Of a stretch of 35,271 bases of DNA, positions 15,993-35,271 are shown one piece after another. A program made the position numbers and the translations under genes. The stretch comes from Cyanobacteria bacterium FACHB-63 (GTDB lineage: Bacteria > Cyanobacteriota > Cyanobacteriia > Leptolyngbyales > Leptolyngbyaceae), in assembly GCA_014695255.1 (NCBI GenBank), contig JACJNX010000164.1:1-35271 (forward strand), in the 5' to 3' direction. Position 1 is the first letter of the stretch. The number at the start of each line of letters is the position of its first letter. Under the pieces are notes generated by a model, which was given only the letters and a program-made list of their open reading frames with translations, was not told the origin of the DNA and did not search any database.

Positions 15993-17432
15993 CTACAACC
16001 TACAAGCTGCAAACTTGTCAAATCGACGCTCGCGTTGATCTGGCCAAGTGAGTTGGTAAGGTAAAGAACCCCGCTGTGGGGCTTGATAGTTTAGCGGTTT
16101 GCGGTTGCCGCTTTGATCCCACCAGCCCACAAGTTTATAAAGTTGTTCGGTATTACGTAAAGCCCTTGTTTGATAAAGATGCAATTGCACACTAAATCCT
16201 TGCTGTCCCTGCGTCGCATCGCGCCAGAGTTGATCGATTCTCATTAACCAATCACAGGGAAATTGTCTCCATTCATCGGTATCAAAGCCCTTCTTCCAGT
16301 TAGATTTCTGACCTGCAATTCCTAGCATCAGTTTGTACGTGGTTTCGTCAGCCGCCCTGAAGTTCCTCTGAGATAATTCAGCCTGTAATTGATTGTAAGT
16401 GCCCTGAAGTTCGCTTGGAAGGGCGGTATAAGGCGATGGACTGGGTGAGATTGAAGGCGCAGAAGTCGGTTGGGCAGCGCGATCATTCGGTGTGGGTTCT
16501 GAAGGTTTGAAAACGAGCAACGCCGCGATCGCTGCGAGTGGAAGCGCGATGCCTATGGCACACGTTCGCGTGACCGCGCTGCCCCATACAACCCACGATT
16601 TGCGCTTCCCTGGGGGTTGAGATAGAGCTTGAACTGCTTGTAGCGCCTGCGATGCTGTGGAATAGCGATCTTTAAAGTAGTAGCGCACCATTGTTGTCAG
16701 CACTGCTGCCAATTTCGGACTGACTGAAGCTCGATGTTGCCAGAGGATTTCTCCTGTCTCCGGATTCTCTTCGAGTTCGCGAGGATGTACCCCAGTCAAC
16801 GCTTGAATCGCAATCATGCCGAGCGCATACAAATCACTATTCGGTCGGGGTCTGCCTTGTCCTTGTTCAGTGGGATAGTAGCCGGGCGTGCCAATTGTAA
16901 TGGTGCGATAACTGATCTCGACTTGAGTGGCTACCACTTGCGGGATCTGTTTGACTGCACCAAAGTCAATCAAGACCAGTTTGCCGTCTGATACACGTCG
17001 AATCAGGTTTTCCGGTTTGAGGTCTCGATGAATCACATTTTGCTGATGCACGTAGACTAATATTCCTAAGACATCGGTGAGCAATTGGATTACCTTTTCT
17101 TCAGTCCACGGTTGTTCGGGCAATATTTCTGTATTCAAGGAATTTCCTTCGATAAATTCCTGAACCAGACAAAACTCTTCGTCTAGATATGCGAACAACT
17201 GAGGAATCTGATCATGTCGTCCCAGTTTTTCTAGCGTTTCGGCTTCACTGTTGAATAATCGCTTTGCCGTATCCAGATGTTCGCCTGCAAAGCGATCGAG
17301 ATAAAGATGTTTGATCACACATTGGGGATTGCCGGGACGACGAATATCCTCACCAATATACGTTTCGCTAAATCCGCCGCCGCCTAAAGCAGCTGTGATT
17401 CGGTAACGCCCATCTAGTACTTGACCAATCAT
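15993..17432 (-). CDS. Transmembrane Ser/Thr protein kinase with C-terminal GUN4 domain
   Basis: 479 residues. Residues 1-270 are a Hanks-type kinase with all key elements: glycine loop ALGGGGFSETY, ATP-binding K41 in CVIKHL, HRDLKPEN at 135-142, DFG at 156-158 and the GTPGYYPTEQ segment. A Lys/Arg stretch (GKRKS) precedes one membrane helix at about 282-308, then a Pro/Ser linker, then a GUN4 domain at about 345-479. With a cytoplasmic N-terminus the GUN4 domain would face the periplasm or lumen and act as the sensor. This arrangement is known in cyanobacteria; the ligand is not. It leads a probable operon with the secreted GUN4 and COP23 genes. A phosphothreonine-reading FHA protein is encoded elsewhere in the window, but nothing links them directly. 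Confidence 0.9.
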   Translation of the reverse strand: MIGQVLDGRYRITAALGGGGFSETYIGEDIRRPGNPQCVIKHLYLDRFAGEHLDTAKRLFNSEAETLEKLGRHDQIPQLFAYLDEEFCLVQEFIEGNSLNTEILPEQPWTEEKVIQLLTDVLGILVYVHQQNVIHRDLKPENLIRRVSDGKLVLIDFGAVKQIPQVVATQVEISYRTITIGTPGYYPTEQGQGRPRPNSDLYALGMIAIQALTGVHPRELEENPETGEILWQHRASVSPKLAAVLTTMVRYYFKDRYSTASQALQAVQALSQPPGKRKSWVVWGSAVTRTCAIGIALPLAAIAALLVFKPSEPTPNDRAAQPTSAPSISPSPSPYTALPSELQGTYNQLQAELSQRNFRAADETTYKLMLGIAGQKSNWKKGFDTDEWRQFPCDWLMRIDQLWRDATQGQQGFSVQLHLYQTRALRNTEQLYKLVGWWDQSGNRKPLNYQAPQRGSLPYQLTWPDQRERRFDKFAACRL

Positions 17433-24731: not shown

Positions 24732-27700
24732 TTAACTACCTTCCTGAATCCAAGTACCTGTTTTCTGATTAAATTTTGATTTTATCCATGTCTTCGTTAC
24801 TTCATCAAATACACTATCCCAAACCCCTGTTACTTTCCCCGTTTCTGGATCTTTCAAGTAATGCTTTTTAACCTTTACTCCACTGACATGCTCAAGTTCT
24901 ACGCGAACTTGTCGAGGCTTGTTAGTTGCTTTATCAATTGTTTCGTACCATGATCTAACGTTGCCTTCTCTATCCACCTCTTTCACTAACCTTCCGCCAA
25001 GAGATGGTCCTTCAGTTGATGCTGGTATAATCCGTCCATAATAACGAATTTTACCGTTTTGCAGAACTTTGTAAGACTCTGCTTCTTTTGCTCTCTTCTT
25101 GTGCTTTGGAAAATCTTCAGGGTTAACTGTAGATTGATCCTTATCCTTTTGAACTTCGGCTTTTGTTGTCTCTTTTTTCTCAGGGTTAACTTTGCCATAA
25201 ATCGCCCAGTTTTCTCCTTGTGGAATTACCTCTAGTATCTGAAGCCTATAACGTAGCTTGATAGTATATAACATCGGCATGAGCAGCATCTTGCCCACTG
25301 GTTTACCAGTAAATCTGTTAACAGTGGCTACTGCAACTTCGACGGCTCGATCTAGCCGTTGCCTTTTCTCAGCTTCCTTGTCTTTCTCGTCAGGCTTGCT
25401 GCCTTTGCCCTTATTGCTATAACCAGACTCATTAGTATGTTTATCGGCTTTTTGTCCCTTACCGTCCTTCTTTCCAAAGAATCTCTCCTTAAGTTTGCCA
25501 AACTTATCGCGCACTTTCTTCATGCCGCCCTTCAACTTCTGACCAACCTTCTTGGCAGCATTCTTCAGCTTGTCGCCAATCTTCTTCGCAATCTCCTTAA
25601 TCTTGCCACCCACCTTACTTGCTGCGCCGCGCACCTTCTTCAACAGCCAGTTCGACACAAAGTCAATTAACACTACACCCGCCGCCGCCAGCATTGACCC
25701 AAACTGGGGTCCAGAATTGCCTGTCTTCACAGCTTTCATAAATGCCATGAACCGTTCCATTGCTTGCAGAATCTGGCTCACGGTTCCCCAAGCTGCCTGT
25801 AACCCTTCTATGATCACCATCACCGTACCCGCAGCAGGTACGATCATCGATACCAGTTTCTCAACCAGAATTTGAATCAGGGCAGGCGGAATTGCCGCTT
25901 TGATGCCATCCCATGCCATCTGACCCACCTGTCCAAGACTGATGCCGCCCTGCTTCAGCATCTGCCAAACGACCATGCCCAAGCCCAGCACTTCATCTAC
26001 CTTTTGGTTAAACCACTCTTTCACCGCCGTTTGGAAAGCCGTCCACAAGTGGTTCTTGATGCCATCCATCACCCCAGCTGCCAAGTTACGCAGCCATTGT
26101 CCTGGACTTGCCGCAATGTCTTTGATTAGAGCAGCAAAAGCCCCAATCGCGCTGACCACTGCTTTTGCTGCTGAAATCGCACCTTGCACAGCGTTACTCA
26201 CTAGATCCACAGCCAGCATGTAGCCCTTCGCCAAGAGCTTGAGTGCCCCATCCAATGCTTTGCCCAGCAGGTTGAGGGCTGCTTGCACTCCCTTCTTGAG
26301 CGTGTCGGCTAGGAAGTTAACAGCAGCTTCCGCTGCCGTCACTACCGCTTTGATCGCATTGCGGAAACGATCGCGCAATTTCGGGAAAGCTGCCAGCAGT
26401 ACATCGGCGATCGCCATCAACGCCTCACCCACCGCTTTGATGGCAGCGACAATGACTTTGCGAGCTGCTTCAATCACCTCGGTTGCCAATTTCTGCGCTG
26501 TTTCGATCACTAGCTTGACTGCTGCACGAGCCAGTTCCAATGCAGCTTGAATGGCTTGCTTGATGCCGTCAAAGAAGGCTTTAGCTTTATCCGCCAGCCA
26601 ACCAAAGAATCCTTTTGGTTCTTGATCTGCCTTCCGCCGCTCTGCTTCTGCTTTTTCTTCTCCCTTCTGCCGCTCTGCCTCGGCATCTCGATTGCCTTTT
26701 TCAACATGAGCAGCGGCTTGCGTTTCAGCTTGGATTTGTTTCTGCTGCACATCCTGCTTGCCCTTAGTGACGGCAGCATCCGCATCCTTGCGAGACTTGT
26801 CTACTAAATCTGTCTGCTCTTTGTTCCAGTCCGATCGCAGCTTACCCACTTCAGCTTGGGTCTTTTCGCGTTCTTTTGCCTGCAAATCAGCATTTTCTTG
26901 CTGAATTTTGCTAATTTCTTGATTCGATTTGGCTTTCTCTTCTACAACTTTTGCAGCATGTTCCTGTCGCTGGGTGGCGATCTGCGATTGAGCTTGAGCA
27001 ACGGCAGCCTGAATCTCTTGTCCACTTTGCTGCTGGGCAATAATCGAGATGGCATCATCTTCACCGCCTCCTTTGATGTTGCCACCTGCTACCTTAACCC
27101 CACTCTCTGCGCTCGTACCCGTTTCGCCGCCTACCGCTTCTGCCTTAAGAATTTCTTTCGGCACGGTGGGATAGATAGCATTTTCGCCCATCGGCTCAGC
27201 CAAATCTTGCCGCCCTTCAGCGTGTGCCTCTGCCGCACTTTTCTCCAGATTGGCTTTCTGCTCGTTGGCTTGGTTCGGGTCAGCATCACCTTCGAGCTTG
27301 AGCGCTGGGGGAGAACCTGCGGTGACGTTAAGACCAGGATCGCTAGTCGGTATCCTGTTGATCGATGACTTCAGGACTTGCACATCCCCCTCAGAAACCT
27401 TGCCTTCTGCATTGCCCTGAATCGGTGGTAAGGACGAGCGACCTATAGGTGCTGGCGGCAACTTTACAGGCGGTGGTGGTGAAACAGATTTTGCTTCCCC
27501 CTGGGGCGCTTTCTCAAATGGTTTCGGCATTTTAGCAGCAGGCAAAGGCTGATCGCCCGCTGCTGCATCTTTCGTAGCGCCTGAACCTGAGGGACGTTCC
27601 ATCTGCGGTGGATTGGCAGCTAGTTCAGCCTGCTTCTGAGCGATTGAACTGTTGATCGCCGTGGTTACACCTCCCAGCCCTGCTTGAATTTGCGTCGGTG

Positions 27701-29960
27701 GCAACTGACTCAAAGATGCCAGTCCTGATGATGGATCGGCTTGGGAGACATCCGGTACAGGTGGAGTCGGCGGGTCTTCAATCGCCGTACCGCCACCGCC
27801 GCCACCGCCCACATCGCCGCCAGTCGCTGCTGCATCGCCACCACTCCCTACATCTGCAAGGGCGCTTTCAACTTCGCTGCGATCGCTTGAAGGTAGCTGT
27901 ACTCCTTCTGAATCGGCGGCAACAGCTGCAATCTCTTCCTCACTAGGGCCTGCTGTTTCTACTTCGTCTGAGGTTTCGCTGGCTCCGCCTGCACTAACGT
28001 CAGCTCCTGTGTCGCTCGCTGCTGGAGCTGCCGCGTTACCCGTGAGTGGAGCGGGTTGAGCGTCCGAGTCGGGAGTCGCCAAAGTAGCTGCTGCGGTTGG
28101 GGATTGAGGTGATTCTTGTTTACTCGCAGATTCACCACGCTCTAGATTTTGTGGCACTGCATCCTGAGCAGCAGGCAGCTTTGTCCCTTCAGTCGCCTTA
28201 GATTCCGCCCCTTTTTCTGTTTTAGCGCCTTCGCTTTCGAGTTCTACAGATGCACCCTTCAGTTTCGCTGCTCCATCCTCTTGCCCCTGATTGGGCTGAG
28301 CATGATTCTCGTTTGTAGGTACAATGGCATCCGCTTTTGAGGCGGCAACTTCTGGCTTAGGTAGGTTAGTCTTACTTTCATTTACCTGCCTATCCTGCTC
28401 AGATGGTAAGGGAACGGACAGCGCTTGCTCGTTATCTGCTATGTCTTTACCTGCTACACCCTGCTGATCGGGCTGATTAGATGGGGTGGCTACTGCTTTG
28501 AATGGAATCTGGTCTTTGTTCGACTTAATTAGAGTTTCTGCTGTATCGGAGATCGAGCGATGGGGCTGTTCTAGGTCAGGTGAAGCAGAATCGTTTTGGA
28601 TTGGTTCTATTGACAAATTAGAACCCTTGTACTTAGAAGATGCTGAACTATTTTCTTGCGCTTCTTCTTGGTCTTCCCAGGGGTTGTAGGTGGGAAGTTG
28701 CTTGGCTTGAATTCGCACTCGATTGGTTTCTACAGGTTTTCGGCTGACCTGCTTATTTGAAATACTCCCCGTTTGTTGAATGACATGAGTGAGTTCGTGA
28801 GCTAACAGTTGTTTCCCTGGATTCGATCCCGGGTCGTACTGGCCCGCATTAAAGAAAATGTCTTTGCCGTGAGTGAAAGCACGTGCCTGCAACTTTTGGT
28901 TTAGCTGTGCAGCCGTCCCATCGGTATGTACTCGCACTTGACTGAATTCTGCCCCAAAGCGCGGCTCCATGAAGGCACGCATATCATCCGATAACGGGCT
29001 ACCTCCACCTTTGCTTTGGGTAAGTGTTTGTTCTATACCGTTACCTGTTTCAGCGCTGCCATTTTGGGTTGATTGCGATAGGGCAGGTTTCCTTTGGACA
29101 ACCTCTTCTTCTGCTTCGGCAGGTTCAGGGGTTACCATGGGCGGCTCTACCGCTGCATCTTCCCCACCTGCTTCGGGATCCATCTCCTGAGGTTCTGCTG
29201 CCATTGGTAGGTCAGCTTCTGTGCCATTAGCCGCAGATGTGTTTTCTGCAGGAACAGCCACCTGTTCTGGTTCGGGTTCTGGAGCTACCTCTTCCCTACC
29301 TGCTTCAGGTTCCATCTCCTGGGATTCTACCGCTACCGTTGGTGGCTCAGCTTCTGGAGCAGTTTCCTGCTGCGCTTCGGCTGCCTCTGTTAGTGATTCA
29401 GGCTCTACATCTGCCTCGTCTTCAGAGAGCGCTTGTCGCTGAACTAAGGGTGTAGTGACGGTAGCTAGATGATCCGTAGGTACACCAGATTCCACTTTGG
29501 GGTGTATGGGAAACTGGCTGAAATTCTTCCGGTGTATATCCGGAGGAAAAAGTGGTATTGCGTTTGACTGGGTTTGGGGTAAAACAGAAACTTTGCTGAA
29601 GTCATGACCTGGAAATCGCTGTACAGGTGAGGTATTCCTAGAATCTGGCATGCGCATGACCTGCTCAGCAACACGATCTGCTTCCTGCTCAGCTGGCTCA
29701 TCAGGTTGGCTCACTGTCAGATGGGGCAGGAGCGGAATTCGACTAAAGTCGTGTCCAATAAACCTATCCTGGGTAACTTGGGAAGTTTGTTCTGGAGTTT
29801 GTTCTGCCGATCGCTGAATATCAGCCTCAGCTCCGATCGTTTGAGCAGGCGAGGCAGTCGCATGAACCTCGGTAGTTTGGCTTAGAGGCGGGAAAATGGA
29901 CTGCGATGAGTCCCCTGGTCGCCCATTGAGCTTACGTTGTGTCACCAAGTGATCGTTCAT
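24732..29960 (-). CDS. Giant DUF4157 polymorphic-toxin-like protein (eCIS effector candidate)
   Basis: 1742 residues. The N-terminus mirrors the first DUF4157 protein: TQRKLNG, IGHDFSRIPLLPHL (68-81), EQEADRVAEQVMRM (91-104), FPGHDFSKVSVLP (116-128). The DUF4157 domain is at about 325-400 (FSQVRVHTDG; zinc site HELTH 388-392). A long disordered Pro/Glu/Ala region follows (400-960), then a coiled coil (~970-1113), an Ala-rich amphipathic/hydrophobic helical region (~1114-1450) that could insert in membranes, and a Lys/Gly-rich link. Near 1535 comes RAVEVAVATVNRFTGKPVGK, which in my recollection is a recurring pre-toxin motif. The last ~110 residues (IRYYGRIIP, RSWYETIDKATNKPRQVRVE, KKHYLKDPETGKV) form a separate domain, the likely toxin; it may be the 'type 24' polymorphic toxin domain, but I am not certain. 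No N-terminal signal peptide, as expected for injected cargo. Confidence 0.85.
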   Translation of the reverse strand: MNDHLVTQRKLNGRPGDSSQSIFPPLSQTTEVHATASPAQTIGAEADIQRSAEQTPEQTSQVTQDRFIGHDFSRIPLLPHLTVSQPDEPAEQEADRVAEQVMRMPDSRNTSPVQRFPGHDFSKVSVLPQTQSNAIPLFPPDIHRKNFSQFPIHPKVESGVPTDHLATVTTPLVQRQALSEDEADVEPESLTEAAEAQQETAPEAEPPTVAVESQEMEPEAGREEVAPEPEPEQVAVPAENTSAANGTEADLPMAAEPQEMDPEAGGEDAAVEPPMVTPEPAEAEEEVVQRKPALSQSTQNGSAETGNGIEQTLTQSKGGGSPLSDDMRAFMEPRFGAEFSQVRVHTDGTAAQLNQKLQARAFTHGKDIFFNAGQYDPGSNPGKQLLAHELTHVIQQTGSISNKQVSRKPVETNRVRIQAKQLPTYNPWEDQEEAQENSSASSKYKGSNLSIEPIQNDSASPDLEQPHRSISDTAETLIKSNKDQIPFKAVATPSNQPDQQGVAGKDIADNEQALSVPLPSEQDRQVNESKTNLPKPEVAASKADAIVPTNENHAQPNQGQEDGAAKLKGASVELESEGAKTEKGAESKATEGTKLPAAQDAVPQNLERGESASKQESPQSPTAAATLATPDSDAQPAPLTGNAAAPAASDTGADVSAGGASETSDEVETAGPSEEEIAAVAADSEGVQLPSSDRSEVESALADVGSGGDAAATGGDVGGGGGGGTAIEDPPTPPVPDVSQADPSSGLASLSQLPPTQIQAGLGGVTTAINSSIAQKQAELAANPPQMERPSGSGATKDAAAGDQPLPAAKMPKPFEKAPQGEAKSVSPPPPVKLPPAPIGRSSLPPIQGNAEGKVSEGDVQVLKSSINRIPTSDPGLNVTAGSPPALKLEGDADPNQANEQKANLEKSAAEAHAEGRQDLAEPMGENAIYPTVPKEILKAEAVGGETGTSAESGVKVAGGNIKGGGEDDAISIIAQQQSGQEIQAAVAQAQSQIATQRQEHAAKVVEEKAKSNQEISKIQQENADLQAKEREKTQAEVGKLRSDWNKEQTDLVDKSRKDADAAVTKGKQDVQQKQIQAETQAAAHVEKGNRDAEAERQKGEEKAEAERRKADQEPKGFFGWLADKAKAFFDGIKQAIQAALELARAAVKLVIETAQKLATEVIEAARKVIVAAIKAVGEALMAIADVLLAAFPKLRDRFRNAIKAVVTAAEAAVNFLADTLKKGVQAALNLLGKALDGALKLLAKGYMLAVDLVSNAVQGAISAAKAVVSAIGAFAALIKDIAASPGQWLRNLAAGVMDGIKNHLWTAFQTAVKEWFNQKVDEVLGLGMVVWQMLKQGGISLGQVGQMAWDGIKAAIPPALIQILVEKLVSMIVPAAGTVMVIIEGLQAAWGTVSQILQAMERFMAFMKAVKTGNSGPQFGSMLAAAGVVLIDFVSNWLLKKVRGAASKVGGKIKEIAKKIGDKLKNAAKKVGQKLKGGMKKVRDKFGKLKERFFGKKDGKGQKADKHTNESGYSNKGKGSKPDEKDKEAEKRQRLDRAVEVAVATVNRFTGKPVGKMLLMPMLYTIKLRYRLQILEVIPQGENWAIYGKVNPEKKETTKAEVQKDKDQSTVNPEDFPKHKKRAKEAESYKVLQNGKIRYYGRIIPASTEGPSLGGRLVKEVDREGNVRSWYETIDKATNKPRQVRVELEHVSGVKVKKHYLKDPETGKVTGVWDSVFDEVTKTWIKSKFNQKTGTWIQEGS

Positions 29961-30061: not shown

Positions 30062-30184
30062 TTAAATCCAGCCTGCTGTCTCGGACTCGGTTAGATTCTT
30101 TTCTAACTTGGCATATTCTGTTTTCGCGGCTTGCAATACATGCTTCATTTGCACCGATTCGCCCGCGTCCGCAGCTAGAAAAGC
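30062..30184 (-). pseudogene. C-terminal relic of a second AAA+ ATPase gene
   Basis: The minus strand encodes AFLAAD, then SVQMKHVLQAAKTEYAKLEK, NLTESETAGWI and a stop. It matches the last ~40 residues of the intact ATPase (AFLAADMREPVQMKHLLQAA... ending NLTESEVAEWI). Over the best 56 bases, 51 are identical at DNA level. Upstream of about 30185 similarity ends abruptly and unrelated plus-strand helicase coding begins, so a deletion removed the first ~610 codons. It shows that the giant toxin was once preceded by its own ATPase, as the other DUF4157 gene still is. Confidence 0.85.
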
Positions 30185-30185
30185 A

Positions 30186-32319
30186 GAAAGCTGGCCCAAA
30201 GAAGATCAGATAGCAGTCAGCGACAAGGAATTACGCCTCCATGTTGAAGGAATGGGTGACCAGCTGGTTGGAGTGATTCAGCGGCTCTGGCGGAGACTTC
30301 AATGGGCATTAGATCAAATGCGTCGCCTGAATGAGTTACGGGTTCAGAAAGGAACCTTAGATCCAGATGAAGATGCCCTTTTCCAACGGTGCGATCGCCT
30401 GATCAAGCGGCTCAAAGGCATTCAGAAGAAACGAAAACAGGATGCAGAAGGATTTGATGATACCAACACCTACAGCGTATTGGCGGCTGAAGGATTCCTA
30501 CCCGGTTACGGGCTAGATACTGGTTCAATCAAAGGCACTGCTCAGACTCCTCGCAGTGCTGGATGGCTCCCCGATTTTGACTTACCTCGTCCCGCAAGTA
30601 TGGCGCTGCGCGAGTATGTTCCCGGCAACTTGATCTATTTGATCTATGCCAATGGTAACCGCTTTGTTCCACGGTTCTTTCATCTTGAGCCAGAAGAACC
30701 CCTCCGTTTCCAGGTTGATATTACCAACGAAGCCATTCGAGAAATGGGAACTGCGGGCACGAGCACCGGGCTATTAGCCTCAACCTTAAAGGCTTTGGCA
30801 ATTTGTAATGTAGACCTCCCGCACCAGTCCAACATCTCCGATGAGGAGGACAACCGTTTTCAGATGCCTGTGACACTATTGGGTTACGAGCAGGACCGAC
30901 ATGATGGAGGATCGGCATACTCCTGGGGAAGTCATACTGTTCTACTGCGTCGTAATGTTCACCTGCGAATGGTCAATATTGGACAACCAGCCTGGTTCGA
31001 GGTGGTAGCTTTGGCTATACCGTTTGCTCTGTTTGCGGACAAAGCCGATCGCCTTTCTCCTCCCAACGAGATCGCGACTTGTTCATTCAGGATCATACTC
31101 AACGCTGTGGCAAACCTGTTGAACCCGTTGGCTTCTATGCCAATATTATCGCCGATGCCCTCACAATTCAGGATTGCGAGAATCGCCAGATTGCCTACAG
31201 CATCATAGAAGCAATTCGGTATGGTGCTGCCAATGTGCTGGATATGGAATTAGACGACCTCCAAATTCTGACGATCGCGTATCCCGGCTCCGAAAGGGTC
31301 GATGTGTTGCTGTACGATCCGATGCCCGGTGGTTCTGGATTGCTAGAGCAGTTATTAGCTCGTTGGACAACGGTAATTTCAGCCGCTTTGGATGTCGTTG
31401 GGAATTGTCCCTCCCAATGTAATACGGCATGTATCGACTGCTTATTCACCTTCCGCAACGCTTACTACCATCGCTATCTCAACCGCCATACAGCATTAGA
31501 AAAGTTGCAGAACTGGGGCGACATTCTCAATCAGAGTCATATCGTTCCGGCCAAACTTCCGAAAGCAGCGCCCAAGGCAGACGCTCAACCTGTCAATGAT
31601 AGAGAGTCCCGTCTCTATGAAATGCTCAAGCGAGCAGGTTTTCCGGAGCCAGCACCACAAAAACCCATTAATTTGGGTCAACCGCTGGGTACTACCAAAC
31701 CTGATTTCTTCTTTGAAGATCCCAATGAAGACCTGGAGGGTATTTGTGTCTATCTGGATGGGATGAGTAAGCATTTACATGGCAATCCAGATACTGCTCA
31801 ACGCGATCGCGCCATCCGGGAGGAACTTCGTAATTCTGAATATGAGGTCATCGAGATTCCTGCGGGTGATCTGGATGATCCTCAGAAGATGGCAAAGTAC
31901 TTCTTCCGTATCGGTAGGATTTTGGTTGGTAAAGCCAAAGCCAAGGATATTCGGGACAATCCTACCTGGTTTGAAGCAACGCCCTCTGCTCCAAATCAAC
32001 AACCTGTTGAATCACCTGCTGAAATTGATTGGAGTTTATTTGAACCCACCTGGCTACCGATTCTAAAGTCACTTGCTGCCGCAGAGGAATCGAGGTCGAT
32101 GGGGGAGAAGATATCGGCGACGAGGGACAAGTTGTAGGAACATGTATCGCTCAGGTGATAAAGGGCAATAACACGCTCCTGATTATTGATGCAACTCGAA
32201 CAGATGCTTCTCAACTCCAGCAGGTGCTGAGCAAGCAAAAGCGTCCCTCGATTGCGATAAACTCTAATCGCCCAGATGCGATCGATCAGATCCTCAACGC
32301 ATTACAGGAGGAAGGCTAA
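30186..32319 (+). pseudogene. DUF1998 helicase-type protein with Vsr/DUF559-like C-terminus, 5'-truncated and twice frameshifted
   Basis: Three frames in succession form one protein. Frame one (30186 to ~31010) has ELRLHVEGMGDQLVGVIQRL, GFLPGYGLDTGS, REYVPGNLIY and RFVPRFFHLEPEEPLRFQ, the linker of DrmB/MrfA/DruE-type helicases. Frame two (~31010-32090) starts with a zinc site, YTVCSVCGQSRSP, and continues into DUF1998: AIRYGAANVLDMELDDLQI, LLYDPMPGGSGLLEQL and the CPSQCNTACIDCLFTFRN cysteines, then a nuclease-like domain (KPDFFFED, ICVYLDGMSKHLHG, IREELRNSEYEVIEIP). Frame three (~32092-32319) is the tail, GEDIGDEGQVVGTCIAQVIK to ALQEEG-stop. Each shift equals one lost base. The helicase motor domains are deleted at the 30185 junction. 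Such proteins unwind DNA in several phage-defence systems. The stop overlaps the next start (TAATG). Confidence 0.75.
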
Positions 32320-32654
32320 TGGTCGTTCTGCTTGGCAAATCTCTCATGACCTCTCTGTCAAAGCTGAATGCGAATGACACGAAGCGCGTCACTGATTTCA
32401 TCGACAAGTTCTATGACAATCCAGTTCATCCCAGCATCAGCCTTGAACGGGTCACGAAGGCAAAGGATGATAACCCCTGGTCTGCTCGCATCACCCAAGG
32501 GCTAAGCGCCATCATCTACAAAGAGGGTAATACTTGGGCGCTGATCTATGCGGGACAGCACGACGATGCTTACGCCTGGGCAAGAGTGCGTCGAGTTGAA
32601 CAGAATGCTAAAACAGGTGCTTTGCAAATCATCGAATTTACAGAGGCGATCTAG
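32319..32654 (+). pseudogene. RelE/ParE-like N-terminal domain of a UvrD-type helicase, cut off by an amber codon
   Basis: 111 residues starting at the ATG that overlaps the upstream stop. MTSLSKLNANDTKRVTDFID, SISLERVTKAKDDNPW, SARITQGLSAIIYKEG and WALIYAGQHDDAYAWARVRR have the shape of a RelE/YoeB/ParE fold, and closely resemble the N-terminal extension seen on some bacterial UvrD-like helicases rather than a free toxin. No antitoxin gene is beside it. After TAG (32652-32654) the same frame continues without another stop (QQFAEKPQNQSGLF, then LLSLGLPPTWL) into the helicase at 32754, so the two were almost certainly one gene and a CAG-to-TAG change split them. Confidence 0.7.
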
Positions 32655-32753
32655 CAGCAGTTTGCCGAGAAGCCTCAGAATCAATCAGGACTGTTTGACG
32701 CTCACAATGACGATTACCTACTAAGTTTAGGCTTACCTCCAACATGGTTAGCA

Positions 32754-34403
32754 GTGATTCGCAAGCTGATCACTGAGGATGACCTGTTGAGCATTTTGGA
32801 AAAACTACCGGAAGAAGTTGCAGAGCGATTTTTGAGATTGGCAGGTGGCGAACTCGTCACCCCTCCCCTGCCTCTACCCCCTGAAAAATCAATCTTCGAG
32901 AACGAAGACACGCAACGACGATTCATTGTGGTTAAGAGTAGTGATGAGATCGCCAAAATTCTGGAAGCTCCCCTAGCAACGTGGATTGGTTTTCTACATC
33001 CCTCCCAGCGCAAATTAGTGACCCATTCCTACAAGGGTCCTGTCAAGGTAACAGGTTCCGCAGGCACAGGGAAAACCGCCGTTGCCATGCATCGAGCGAA
33101 ACATCTGGCACAGCAGGGTAAGAAAGTGCTTGTGACCAGCTTCGTTAAAACTCTCTGTGACAACATCAACCGTAACCTGAAGTTGTTGTGTAGCCCTGAT
33201 GAACTGGCAAACATTACGGTTGGTACAGTTGCCAGTCAAGCAGGGCATATTCTCAAGGAAGGCAATAAGTTCCTGTCCATTGCGAACGACGAAGAAATTC
33301 AATCCCTAATTGCACAAAACTTCTCGTCCACTTGTCCTCTTGACAGTTCTGCACTCTGGCTGGAATGGAAATTTGTAATTCAACTACAGGGAATTGTCGC
33401 GTGGGAGGAGTACCGCTCTGCAAATCGCGCAGGACGTGGGCAACCCTTAAGTGCTAAGGGGCGTAAGCAAGTTTGGCAAATCTTTGAACTCGTTCTTTCC
33501 CAACTGCAAGCCCAGAATAAAACAGATTGGTCTGGATTATACCACCATGCAAGTGACTTAATTGCATCGGGACAAGTTGCAAGCCCTTTTGATGCTGTAA
33601 TTGTGGACGAGACGCAAGACCTCAAGCCACAAGAACTTAAGTTTCTGGCAGCTTTAGCAGGCGTTCGCCCTGCCTCATCAGTTCGCTCAAACAGTTTAAT
33701 GTTAGTTGGGGACGGCGGACAGCGTATCTATCAAGGAAAGCTCAGCCTGAAATCGTTAGGGATTAACGTTCAAGGACGATCCCATGTCTTGAAAATCAAT
33801 TACAGAACTACTGAGCAGATTCGTCAGTTTGCTGACCAAGTGCTTGACGAAGCACAGGATGACCTGGATGGGGGAACTGAACAGCGTTCAGGCACCATTA
33901 GTCTGCTGAATGGTCCTGAACCCGTACTAAAACCTTTTTCTAGTGCAACTGAACAAGCAGACTTTGTAGCTGAAGAAATTTCCCGGCTAACTCAGCAAGG
34001 AATTTTACCGAGCGAAATTGGGATTTTTAGTCGCACAAAAAATCTCCTGAAACCGATCGAAAAGTCTCTGAAGAAGCAGAAAGTTGACTGTATTCGGCTG
34101 GACGACCAAGAAACAGATACCGGAGCTGATGCAGTGAACACAGGCAGCATGCATCGAGCAAAAGGACTTGAATTCAAAGTTGTTTTTGCCGTTTACCTCT
34201 CTGATGATGTAATTCCGTCTCCTCATATCGAGGACGAGAACGATCTCCAGGCTCGTAAAGAGGCACTGGAGCAAGAACAGCATCTGCTCTATGTCAGTAT
34301 TACCCGTGCAAGGGATGCAGTGTATCTATGTTGGAACGGTCAGCCCAGCCGCTTCTTGAAAGGGATCAAGGGTAGTGAATCGATTGATGTAGCAGTATCC
34401 TGA
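32754..34403 (+). CDS. UvrD/Rep-type superfamily 1 helicase
   Basis: 549 residues counted from GTG 32754; the original start was probably the ATG at 32319. Motifs in order: Q-motif-like HPSQRKLV, Walker A GSAGTGKT (101-108), Ia VLVTSFVKTLCDNI, Walker B/II IVDETQDL (about 282-289), III LVGDGGQRIYQG (about 317), IV KINYRTTEQIR, V GSMHRAKGLEFKVV, VI LLYVSITRARDAVYL (about 511). All key residues are intact, so a protein restarted at the GTG might still work, although no good ribosome-binding site is seen. The enzyme would translocate 3'-5' on single-stranded DNA using ATP. It sits between a DUF1998 helicase and an McrC-like gene, 8 bases before the latter, which suggests a nucleic-acid-directed defence operon. 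Confidence 0.85.
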   Translation: MIRKLITEDDLLSILEKLPEEVAERFLRLAGGELVTPPLPLPPEKSIFENEDTQRRFIVVKSSDEIAKILEAPLATWIGFLHPSQRKLVTHSYKGPVKVTGSAGTGKTAVAMHRAKHLAQQGKKVLVTSFVKTLCDNINRNLKLLCSPDELANITVGTVASQAGHILKEGNKFLSIANDEEIQSLIAQNFSSTCPLDSSALWLEWKFVIQLQGIVAWEEYRSANRAGRGQPLSAKGRKQVWQIFELVLSQLQAQNKTDWSGLYHHASDLIASGQVASPFDAVIVDETQDLKPQELKFLAALAGVRPASSVRSNSLMLVGDGGQRIYQGKLSLKSLGINVQGRSHVLKINYRTTEQIRQFADQVLDEAQDDLDGGTEQRSGTISLLNGPEPVLKPFSSATEQADFVAEEISRLTQQGILPSEIGIFSRTKNLLKPIEKSLKKQKVDCIRLDDQETDTGADAVNTGSMHRAKGLEFKVVFAVYLSDDVIPSPHIEDENDLQARKEALEQEQHLLYVSITRARDAVYLCWNGQPSRFLKGIKGSESIDVAVS

Positions 34404-34411
34404 GGTTCTAC

Positions 34412-34645
34412 ATGCTTTGGCAAGGAACATCACGGACTGAAATCACGACCCTCTTCGAGTACGAATCCATAGAGATTCCAGATGGATACGAACGGAAATG
34501 CCTTGAGCAATTATCCAAAACGACAGGAATTGAAATTCTCAAGCCAATTGTCAAAAACGGACAGCTTTTGTTTCAAGCAAGACAGCATGTTGGAGTACTG
34601 CGTCTAGGGAGGCGAACACTTCAAATTCTTCCCAAAATTCACTGA
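34412..34645 (+). pseudogene. McrC-like protein, N-terminal part, ended by an opal codon
   Basis: 77 residues from ATG 34412: ITTLFEYESIEIP, ILKPIVKNGQLLFQARQHVG, VLRLGRRTLQILPKIH, then TGA at 34643-34645. The segment V-G-x-(L/I)-x-x-G-x-x-x-L-x-I-L-P-K-I is the start of McrC-family (DUF2357-related) proteins, the nuclease subunit of McrBC-type modification-dependent restriction. The same frame continues directly after the TGA with the expected McrC sequence, so one base change (for example CGA to TGA) broke the gene. No McrB-type GTPase gene is adjacent. Confidence 0.75.
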
Positions 34646-35188
34646 TCGCATAACCGGGAGCAAAACCAACAGGAAGCCGCCCGTAACTTACTGCTCATGC
34701 TGGATTACACAGGATGTTTGGGAATTCGAGAAGTGAATTTAGCTGCGCTTCAGCGCTCTCAGAATTGGTTTGAAGTCCTAATTTACCTATTTGCGTCGCA
34801 TCTAAAGCGGGAATGGCAGAAAACTGCTCATCATAGCTATCAGCAGATCGATGCCGTACTCCCAGTCTTAAGGGGTAAGTGGCAAATTGCAACACAATTA
34901 AGGCGACCAGAACAAAAGCATTTGTTTAGAGTGACCTATGACGAATTCACGGTAGATAATCCGCTTAACCAGGTTTTTCGCTATGTTGTCGAGAAAGTAT
35001 GGCAGTTGACCCGAGACAGCGGTAATCGCCAGAGTTTAACTGAGTTGAGACATTGGATGGATGAAGTAACGCTTCTACCTGTCGTCACGGCTGACATGGC
35101 AAAACAGATTCAGTTATCGCGCCTCAACACGCGATATAAACCATTGCTCAATCTAGCAGAGAGCATCCCAAATGTGCAAAAAGGCTAG
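34646..35188 (+). pseudogene. McrC-like protein, middle part, truncated by an insertion sequence
   Basis: In frame with the preceding fragment: REQNQQEAARNLLLMLDYTG, FEVLIYLFASHLKREWQ, HHSYQQIDAVLPVLRGKW, FRVTYDEFTVDNPLNQVFRY and SRLNTRYKPLLNLAE. These are conserved McrC stretches (N-Q-Q-E-A-A-R-N-L, the Y-x-x-x-x-x-x-L-P-x-x-R-G-x segment, D-E-x-x-x-x-N-P-x-N). An internal ATG at 34697 could restart it. Similarity stops at about 35160, and the last residues before TAG (35186-35188) come from an insertion-sequence end. The PD-(D/E)XK nuclease active site of McrC lies further toward the C-terminus and is missing, so this gene is inactive. Confidence 0.75.
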
Positions 35189-35271
35189 GCGGCTAAGGTT
35201 CGATTGAGGTACGCACACCGTAAGCGCAACATCTGATTGACATTCTCTCGCCTCCACTGAGCACCCGATAG
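35185..35271 (-). CDS. Transposase C-terminus, ISKra4-like (cut by window edge)
   Basis: The last 27 full codons before a TAG at 35185-35187 read SGAQWRRENVNQMLRLRCAY, then LNRTLAA. The pattern (I/S)-G-A-x-W-x-x-E-N-V-x-x-(M/V)-L-x-x-R-C-A-Y-L-N is, as I recall it, the C-terminus of ISKra4-family transposases. The gene runs in from beyond the window on the minus strand. The element's end probably lies at about 35160-35180, where McrC similarity is lost. Confidence 0.6.
   Translation of the reverse strand, partial: LSGAQWRRENVNQMLRLRCAYLNRTLAA

What the first reader, a model, noticed from the sequence alone, without database searches (positions are those of the whole stretch)
30186..35188. 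Unnamed three-gene defence-like operon: DUF1998 helicase + RelE-UvrD helicase + McrC
Three coupled plus-strand genes (TAATG overlap, then an 8-base gap) combine a DUF1998 zinc-binding helicase with a Vsr/DUF559-like C-terminus, a UvrD-type helicase carrying a RelE-like N-terminal domain, and an McrC-family nuclease without McrB. DUF1998 helicases occur in DISARM, Druantia and MrfAB; McrC normally needs the McrB GTPase motor. A pairing in which McrC is driven by a RelE-tagged UvrD motor does not match any system I can name. The window holds a decayed copy, so intact relatives should be sought elsewhere.
Basis: partly seen in the sequence, partly recalled or inferred. Interest (0 to 1): 0.72.

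Follow-up and report, generated by a model that had tools for sequence, protein, structure and literature searches.

The report
Decayed ARMADA defence operon with McrBC
The three broken genes are the tail end of a bacterial anti-phage system that has already been described (ARMADA), followed by part of a well-known DNA-cutting pair (McrBC) whose other half is found on a separate piece of the same genome, so this looks like an ordinary, inactivated defence locus rather than a new one.

Summary
The three families are there with the stated spacing, but the reading changes. [quoted passage not shown] McrC is not without McrB: in an intact relative, Myxacorys californica WJT36-NPBG1, McrC is followed by an overlapping McrB-type gene (GPPGTGKT, MNTADR), and the window's own genome has an 86% identical McrB remnant at the start of contig C75; the window stops because its contig stops. 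The Myxacorys order, on one strand, is TnsB-TnsC-TniQ, ArmA, ArmB, MkoA, MkoB, ArmC, ArmD, McrC, McrB. The trio was not seen to recur: McrC was found in 1 of 24 distinct ARMADA-like loci (4 of them cut short downstream), and of 386 sampled genomes of the phylum only the window's and Myxacorys passed both searches. A YprA cassette beside McrBC is already in print. The window copy should be dead: no ArmC motor, two frameshifts, stops in ArmD and McrC, and no McrC nuclease motif. The RelE fold is supported by structure prediction.

The parts
30180..32310 (+). ArmC (YprA/DUF1998 helicase) remnant: residues 1214-1930 of 1932, in three frames (30180-30989, 30980-32089, 32068-32310); the half that holds the DEAD and Helicase_C matches in the relative (residues 93-181 and 1020-1088) is absent
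   Evidence: tblastn and genome search with the intact Myxacorys protein: 91%, 85-86% and 59-64% identity; domain places
31208..31444 (+). MZB (DUF1998) zinc-binding domain of ArmC
   Evidence: Pfam PF09369 E 2.5e-11, residues 38-116 of window:31097-32134
31604..31861 (+). Vsr/DUF559-like nuclease region of ArmC (inferred)
   Evidence: Residues read by eye, places; published ArmC ends in a Vsr-type nuclease (PMC12458937); no Pfam match in the relative
32319..34403 (+). ArmD remnant, RelE-UvrD helicase: residues 1-688, one in-frame TAG at 32652-32654
   Evidence: 87% identity to intact ArmD; groups with most ARMADA ArmD proteins in a tree
32319..32651 (+). RelE-fold N-terminal domain of ArmD; the arginine invariant in 51 of 51 aligned relatives (R63) is serine here
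   Evidence: AlphaFold2 model of the relative's domain and PDB searches; alignment A2; window translation
32754..34400 (+). UvrD/GajB-like helicase part of ArmD
   Evidence: Pfam UvrD_C E 2.2e-24 and UvrD-helicase E 1.8e-21; PADLOC C3a187, GajB and RTasHel models
34412..35164 (+). McrC remnant: residues 1-251 of 437, TGA at 34643-34645; the D-I-K stretch at residue 342 of the intact protein (taken, from recall, as the PD-(D/E)xK nuclease motif) is absent
35165..35271 (.). Non-McrC tail up to the contig end; on the minus strand it reads as a 28-aa open frame ending in TAG, possibly a transposase C-terminus (by eye only)
   Evidence: only its own copy found in the genome; translation; no Pfam match

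Best explanation
The finding is the decayed 3' half of an ARMADA anti-phage operon with a McrC-McrB (Type IV restriction) pair directly behind it. In the intact form, ArmA (a DrmD/BrxHII-type SNF2 ATPase), ArmB (a PglX-like DNA methyltransferase), ArmC (a YprA-type SF2 helicase with a DUF1998 zinc domain and a Vsr-like nuclease end) and ArmD (a GajB-like SF1 helicase with a RelE-fold domain) act together against phage without killing the cell; that was shown by others for the E. coli Type II system and is inferred here. The likely route (inferred) is that ArmB marks or checks self DNA and the ArmA/ArmC/ArmD motors act on unmarked DNA. McrC and McrB form the usual GTP-driven nuclease that cuts modified DNA (recalled from the McrBC family), so the two modules would cover unmodified and modified phage genomes (inferred). 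In the window genome what remains of the locus is inactivated.
For: Intact locus G185:C11 (Myxacorys, JAHHHO010000035.1), one strand, in order: ArmA 1095 aa, ArmB, MkoA 1150, MkoB 507, ArmC 1932, ArmD 688, McrC 437, McrB-like 668 aa. ArmA passes the NCBIfam DrmD cut-off (666.5 against 610); ArmB matches a Type IIG REase-MTase model (1535 bits) and DrmMI (E 4.2e-131); ArmC matches DruE3 (E 1.5e-119) far better than DrmA (E 3.1e-14). In a FastTree tree of 52 proteins, window ArmD lies in a 31-row group (local support 99) with 22 of the 23 ARMADA rows and none of the 14 restriction-modification rows that I sampled from 48. An ArmC-type helicase lies within 3.5 kb of RelE-UvrD in 24 distinct loci, Myxacorys included. 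The 668-aa protein has AAA_5, GPPGTGKT and MNTADR. Close McrC relatives stand with a McrB relative, and without ArmC/ArmD in the stretch fetched, in Acaryochloris plasmid pMB05 (25 kb), G193 (12 kb; the two genes are about 1.5 kb apart there) and a viral contig (13 kb). McrB remnant in the own genome. dN/dS of the remnants against Myxacorys is 0.04-0.08 (dS is above 1, so a rough figure), which says that the genes were under selection for most of the divergence and broke late. Literature: PMC12458937 passages and PMC11090510 passages.
Against: Myxacorys ArmC lies on its own deep branch with Thiohalocapsa L092, outside the clade of the E. coli-type proteins, and I had no labelled Type I protein, so the ARMADA type is not settled. 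L092's ArmD, although beside an ArmC, falls on the restriction-modification side, so ArmD type does not follow context strictly. Mokosh genes interrupt the published strict order. The link between contigs C73 and C75 is inferred, not assembled. ArmA and ArmB of this type were not found in the window's genome, only a separate DISARM-like set. The preprint calls the YprA-McrBC association frequent, but I found McrC in only 1 of 24 distinct RelE-UvrD-bearing ARMADA-like loci.
Confidence: 0.88

Rival explanations
1. A distinct three-gene system in which McrC is driven by the RelE-UvrD helicase instead of McrB.
For: Tight coupling with an 8-base gap between ArmD and McrC in both the window and Myxacorys.
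Against: McrB follows McrC in Myxacorys with overlapping frames and survives as a remnant in the own genome; close McrC homologues stand with McrB and without ArmC/ArmD in the fetched stretches L131, L132 and L149; the trio was found in no ARMADA-like locus but Myxacorys (1 of 24 distinct; four of the 24 end within 2 kb downstream).
Confidence: 0.03
2. A layered superoperon: ARMADA, Mokosh and McrBC are transcribed together in the Myxacorys lineage and act as one graded defence, carried by a Tn7-like element.
For: Eight co-directional genes, with gaps of at most about 145 bases or overlaps, behind TnsB-TnsC-TniQ; the ArmC-ArmD-McrC stretch, and less directly McrB, is supported by a second genome.
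Against: One intact example only; gaps of about 145 and 111 bases flank the Mokosh pair; no transcript data; transposon ends and Cas12k were not sought; none of the other loci carried the TnsB or MkoAB set beside ArmC.
Confidence: 0.25
3. A decayed DISARM class 1 locus.
For: ArmA and ArmB match DrmD and DrmMI models.
Against: The helicase and DUF1998 parts are fused in one 1932-aa protein that matches DruE models best; a RelE-UvrD subunit follows it. The PLD protein beside it matches MkoB (E 4.9e-79) and DrmC only weakly (E 6.3e-07). The same genome as the window holds a separate DISARM-like set with helicase and MZB proteins split, on C90.
Confidence: 0.05

Closest known systems
ARMADA Type II (ArmABCD; Bell et al. 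2025 preprint, PMC12458937)
   Same: YprA/DUF1998 helicase followed by a UvrD helicase with a RelE N-terminus; ArmA and ArmB upstream in the same order in the intact relative
   Different: Mokosh genes lie between ArmB and ArmC; ArmC is on a separate deep branch; the window copy is a 3' remnant
McrBC Type IV restriction (census in PMC11090510)
   Same: McrC with the McrBC family match, and an overlapping McrB-type AAA+ gene with MNTADR
   Different: McrC precedes McrB and directly follows ArmD; truncated in the window
Mokosh (MkoA-MkoB)
   Same: PADLOC MkoA E 5e-260 and MkoB E 4.9e-79 in the intact relative
   Different: Nested in the ARMADA order in Myxacorys; in the window only a 24% identical kinase stretch elsewhere (16623-17432) matched MkoA, and MkoB matched nothing
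DISARM class 1 and Druantia III
   Same: Share DrmD/DrmMI-type and DruE-type proteins with this locus
   Different: Split helicase and DUF1998 proteins in DISARM; DruH partner in Druantia III (abstracts); a RelE-UvrD subunit belongs to neither as far as I recall

Membership tests
ARMADA Type II | YprA-type helicase with DUF1998/MZB (ArmC) | tested here: met
   DEAD, Helicase_C and MZB in the intact relative; MZB in the window
ARMADA Type II | ArmD: GajB-like UvrD helicase with RelE N-terminus directly after ArmC | tested here: met
ARMADA Type II | ArmA (BrxHII/RapA-like) and ArmB (PglX-like) present | tested here: met
   Present in Myxacorys; in the window genome the only matches were in a separate DISARM-like set
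ARMADA Type II | Gene order A-B-C-D | tested here: inconclusive
   Order kept, but MkoA-MkoB sit between B and C
ARMADA Type II | C-terminal Vsr-type nuclease in ArmC | tested here: inconclusive
   No Pfam match; residues read by eye
ARMADA Type II | ArmC inside the Type II clade of the YprA tree | tested here: inconclusive
   Own deep branch with L092; no labelled Type I reference
ARMADA Type II | Anti-phage activity | not testable with these tools
   needs phage assays
McrBC Type IV restriction | McrC nuclease of the McrBC family | tested here: met
   E 5e-72 intact, E 9.5e-31 window
McrBC Type IV restriction | McrB AAA+ GTPase with the MNxxD signature beside McrC | tested here: met
   Myxacorys; remnant on own contig C75
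McrBC Type IV restriction | Nuclease residues present in the window copy | tested here: not met
   Window McrC ends at residue 251; D-I-K at 342 of the intact protein; the window copy is a remnant, the family is judged on the relative
DISARM class 1 | Separate DrmA helicase and DrmB DUF1998 proteins | tested here: not met
   Fused 1932-aa ArmC with DEAD, Helicase_C and MZB
Druantia III | DruH partner of DruE | not tested
   No DruH search was made; neighbours in Myxacorys are MkoB and ArmD

The most novel reading that the evidence does not exclude
In one cyanobacterial lineage ARMADA, a nested Mokosh pair and McrBC form a single co-transcribed, layered defence operon that travels as cargo of a Tn7-like (V-K CAST-type TnsB-TnsC-TniQ) element, with McrBC covering modified phage DNA that ARMADA spares.
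Probability: 0.2. Interest if true: 0.45.

Novelty: new member of a known kind. Interest (0 to 1): 0.18.

Why it matters
It removes an apparent anomaly (McrC without its motor) and files the locus under a system described in 2025, which PADLOC-DB 2.0.0 of 2023 scores only through DruE, GajB and other UvrD models. The wider point is that RelE-UvrD (ArmD-type) helicases were seen in two main settings, ARMADA-like loci and BPTD_3080-type restriction-modification loci, so the role of the RelE domain there is a question that can now be tested.

Tried and rejected
McrC driven by RelE-UvrD: rejected, because McrB is present in the relative and as a remnant in the own genome. A recurring trio: not found. 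DISARM: rejected because of the fused helicase-DUF1998 protein. A second close copy in the own genome: none found for ArmC, ArmD or McrC (and one search list only weaker helicase paralogues at 30-41% identity).

Led nowhere or limited: Pfam gave no match for the RelE domain in the window (a sub-threshold ParE_like hit, E 0.082, for the E. coli domain), and PDB sequence search gave only weak RelE3 and YoeB hits (E 0.51, 0.83) below unrelated phosphoprotein and IMP dehydrogenase hits, so the fold rests on the model. The contig-end tails gave no Pfam match. L018 (Synechocystis B12 plasmid) holds ArmB and ArmC pieces close to Myxacorys but no RelE-UvrD in the stretch fetched. Of the 98, 21 had none of the reference neighbours; in 17 of these 21 the held DNA begins less than 4 kb upstream of the gene. 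One intended ArmB reference (L047) was misframed and skipped. The census of downstream genes covers 48 genes of at least 150 aa from 20 of the 24 loci, and one search prints the first 25 of 45 families. MkoA, TnsB and Cas12k were not searched in the window's genome, and Cas12k was not searched in Myxacorys.

Full report
What is there. The window is one whole contig (G000:C73, 35,271 bases). At its right end stand a DUF1998/MZB helicase fragment, a UvrD helicase with a short N-terminal domain, and McrC, with the TAATG overlap and the 8-base gap described. Comparison with an intact relative shows the decay: the helicase keeps residues 1214-1930 of 1932 in three frames, RelE-UvrD is full length with one TAG, and McrC keeps 251 of 437 residues with one TGA. 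The window's RelE part also has serine at a position that is arginine in 51 of 51 aligned relatives. dN/dS of 0.04 to 0.08 against the relative, with dS above 1 and therefore rough, says that the genes were under selection for most of the divergence and broke late.

The intact relative. A search of 386 sampled genomes of the phylum found RelE-UvrD in 15 (E 1e-40 or better) and a McrC relative in 15 (E 1e-30 or better); only the window genome and G185 are in both lists. On one strand its contig holds TnsB, TnsC and TniQ, then ArmA (1095 aa), ArmB, MkoA, MkoB, ArmC (1932 aa), ArmD (688 aa), McrC (437 aa) and a 668-aa AAA_5 protein. The last has GPPGTGKT and MNTADR and is taken as the McrB partner. 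In a search of 42 genomes of the order, 6 had an ArmC-like match at E 1e-30 or better, the window's own fragments included, and only Myxacorys a full one of this type, so the locus is patchy.

McrB is not missing. The window genome has McrB residues 48-667 at 86% identity, with one TAA, at bases 112-1971 of contig C75. C75 begins with about 110 bases that recur at C31 and C6 (81% and 74%). At C31 they end a frame with a Pfam DDE transposase match (E 2.5e-09); the C6 copy looks alike but was not tested. An insertion between McrC and McrB that broke the assembly fits this best, though the link is inferred. Close relatives of this McrC also stand with McrB and without ArmC and ArmD, in the stretches fetched, in an Acaryochloris plasmid, in G193, where about 1.5 kb separates the two genes, and in a viral contig, so McrC-McrB is an independent module.

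What the helicase pair is. In a preprint, Bell et al. (PMC12458937; I saw the abstract and outline, passages, and section 8; [quoted passage not shown] coli. This is the window's pair. An E. coli locus like the published one (Zorya II, a Druantia III-type helicase, then ArmA to ArmD, with ArmA frameshifted) was seen; 526 of 5,426 E. coli genomes hold a match to the ArmC-ArmD DNA of Escherichia sp. E1V33, 518 of them over at least 80% of it. In a FastTree tree of 52 proteins the window's ArmD lies in a 31-row group (local support 99) with 22 of 23 ARMADA rows and none of 14 restriction-modification rows sampled from 48; the 23rd ARMADA row, L092, falls on the restriction-modification side. In a quick tree of 28 helicases Myxacorys ArmC sits with Thiohalocapsa L092 on a deep branch of its own, so its ARMADA type is open.

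How common. Of 98 RelE-UvrD loci (97 distinct), 25 rows (24 distinct) have an ArmC-type helicase within 3.5 kb, 48 have a BPTD_3080-type restriction endonuclease with its methyltransferase (36) or the methyltransferase alone (12), 3 have ArmA or ArmB without ArmC, 1 has BrxL and 21 have none of the references. The sample leans to ArmD relatives of Myxacorys. McrC was found in one distinct locus; in 4 of the 24 ARMADA-like loci the held DNA ends within 2 kb downstream. Among 48 genes downstream of ArmD from 20 of the 24 loci, McrBC matched 1, GmrSD_N 2 and Mrr_cat 1. The YprA cassette next to McrBC is already in print: PMC12458937 says a DISARM-like cassette with a YprA-like helicase is frequently associated with canonical McrBC operons, citing the McrBC census (PMC11090510, passages seen). 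My count is lower than 'frequent', perhaps because my sample was chosen by RelE-UvrD.

How it works. Shown by others for E. coli: ARMADA blocks phage without abortive infection, and mutation of the ArmA and ArmC Walker motifs, the ArmD Walker A motif or the ArmB NPPW motif abolishes protection. Inferred: ArmB sets self from non-self, the motors act on unmarked DNA, and McrBC adds cutting of modified DNA. In the window genome this should not work: the ArmC motor, McrC's nuclease part and McrB's first 47 residues were not found.

Verdict. An ordinary, decayed member of a known kind. The part that remains open is whether the Myxacorys arrangement, with Mokosh nested inside ARMADA, McrBC behind it and a Tn7-like transposition set in front, works or moves as one unit. 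Tn7-like elements are known to carry many defence systems (PMC8649781, passages seen). None of the three papers listed holds both ARMADA and Mokosh, but that search listed only open-licence papers with at least four of its five terms, so a paper with just those two would not show.

Noticed in passing
L020, L022 and 46 further loci: RelE-UvrD (ArmD-type) helicases sit in the neighbourhood of BPTD_3080-like restriction endonuclease plus methyltransferase (36 loci) or the methyltransferase alone (12 loci) in 48 of 98 loci, a second setting for this protein; NCBIfam NF046055 was tested for L020 only. The 14 of these sampled for the tree fall together, with one ARMADA-context protein (L092) beside them.
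   Followed up: partly
L147:8549-12710 (G185:C11:27048-31209): TnsB, TnsC and TniQ, best matched by V-K CAST models, lie directly upstream of ArmA in Myxacorys; Cas12k and transposon ends were not sought.
   Followed up: partly
G000:C90:55182-69451 (L165:3183-17452): The window's genome has a DISARM-like set on one strand: SNF2 helicase, MmeI/Eco57I-type methyltransferase, Uma2 protein, helicase, MZB protein and PLD protein (Pfam).
   Followed up: partly
L026:8449-11013 and L034:5211-7121: GmrSD-type Type IV restriction genes sit between ArmC and ArmD (L026) or after ArmD (L034).
   Followed up: partly
L025, L026, L092: ArmC and ArmD trees disagree: Myxacorys ArmC pairs with Thiohalocapsa L092, but its ArmD lies with L026 and L045, which suggests swapping of subunits.
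   Followed up: partly
L018:918-9911: Synechocystis B12 plasmid holds ArmB and ArmC pieces of the Myxacorys type in several frames, without RelE-UvrD in the stretch fetched.
   Followed up: no
window 24732-29960 (-): A 1742-aa protein with an eCIS core domain (PF13699, E 7.5e-34) lies just upstream of the remnant.
   Followed up: no
window 15993-17432 (-): A protein kinase fused to a GUN4-like domain; its kinase part is what MkoA matches weakly in the window.
   Followed up: no
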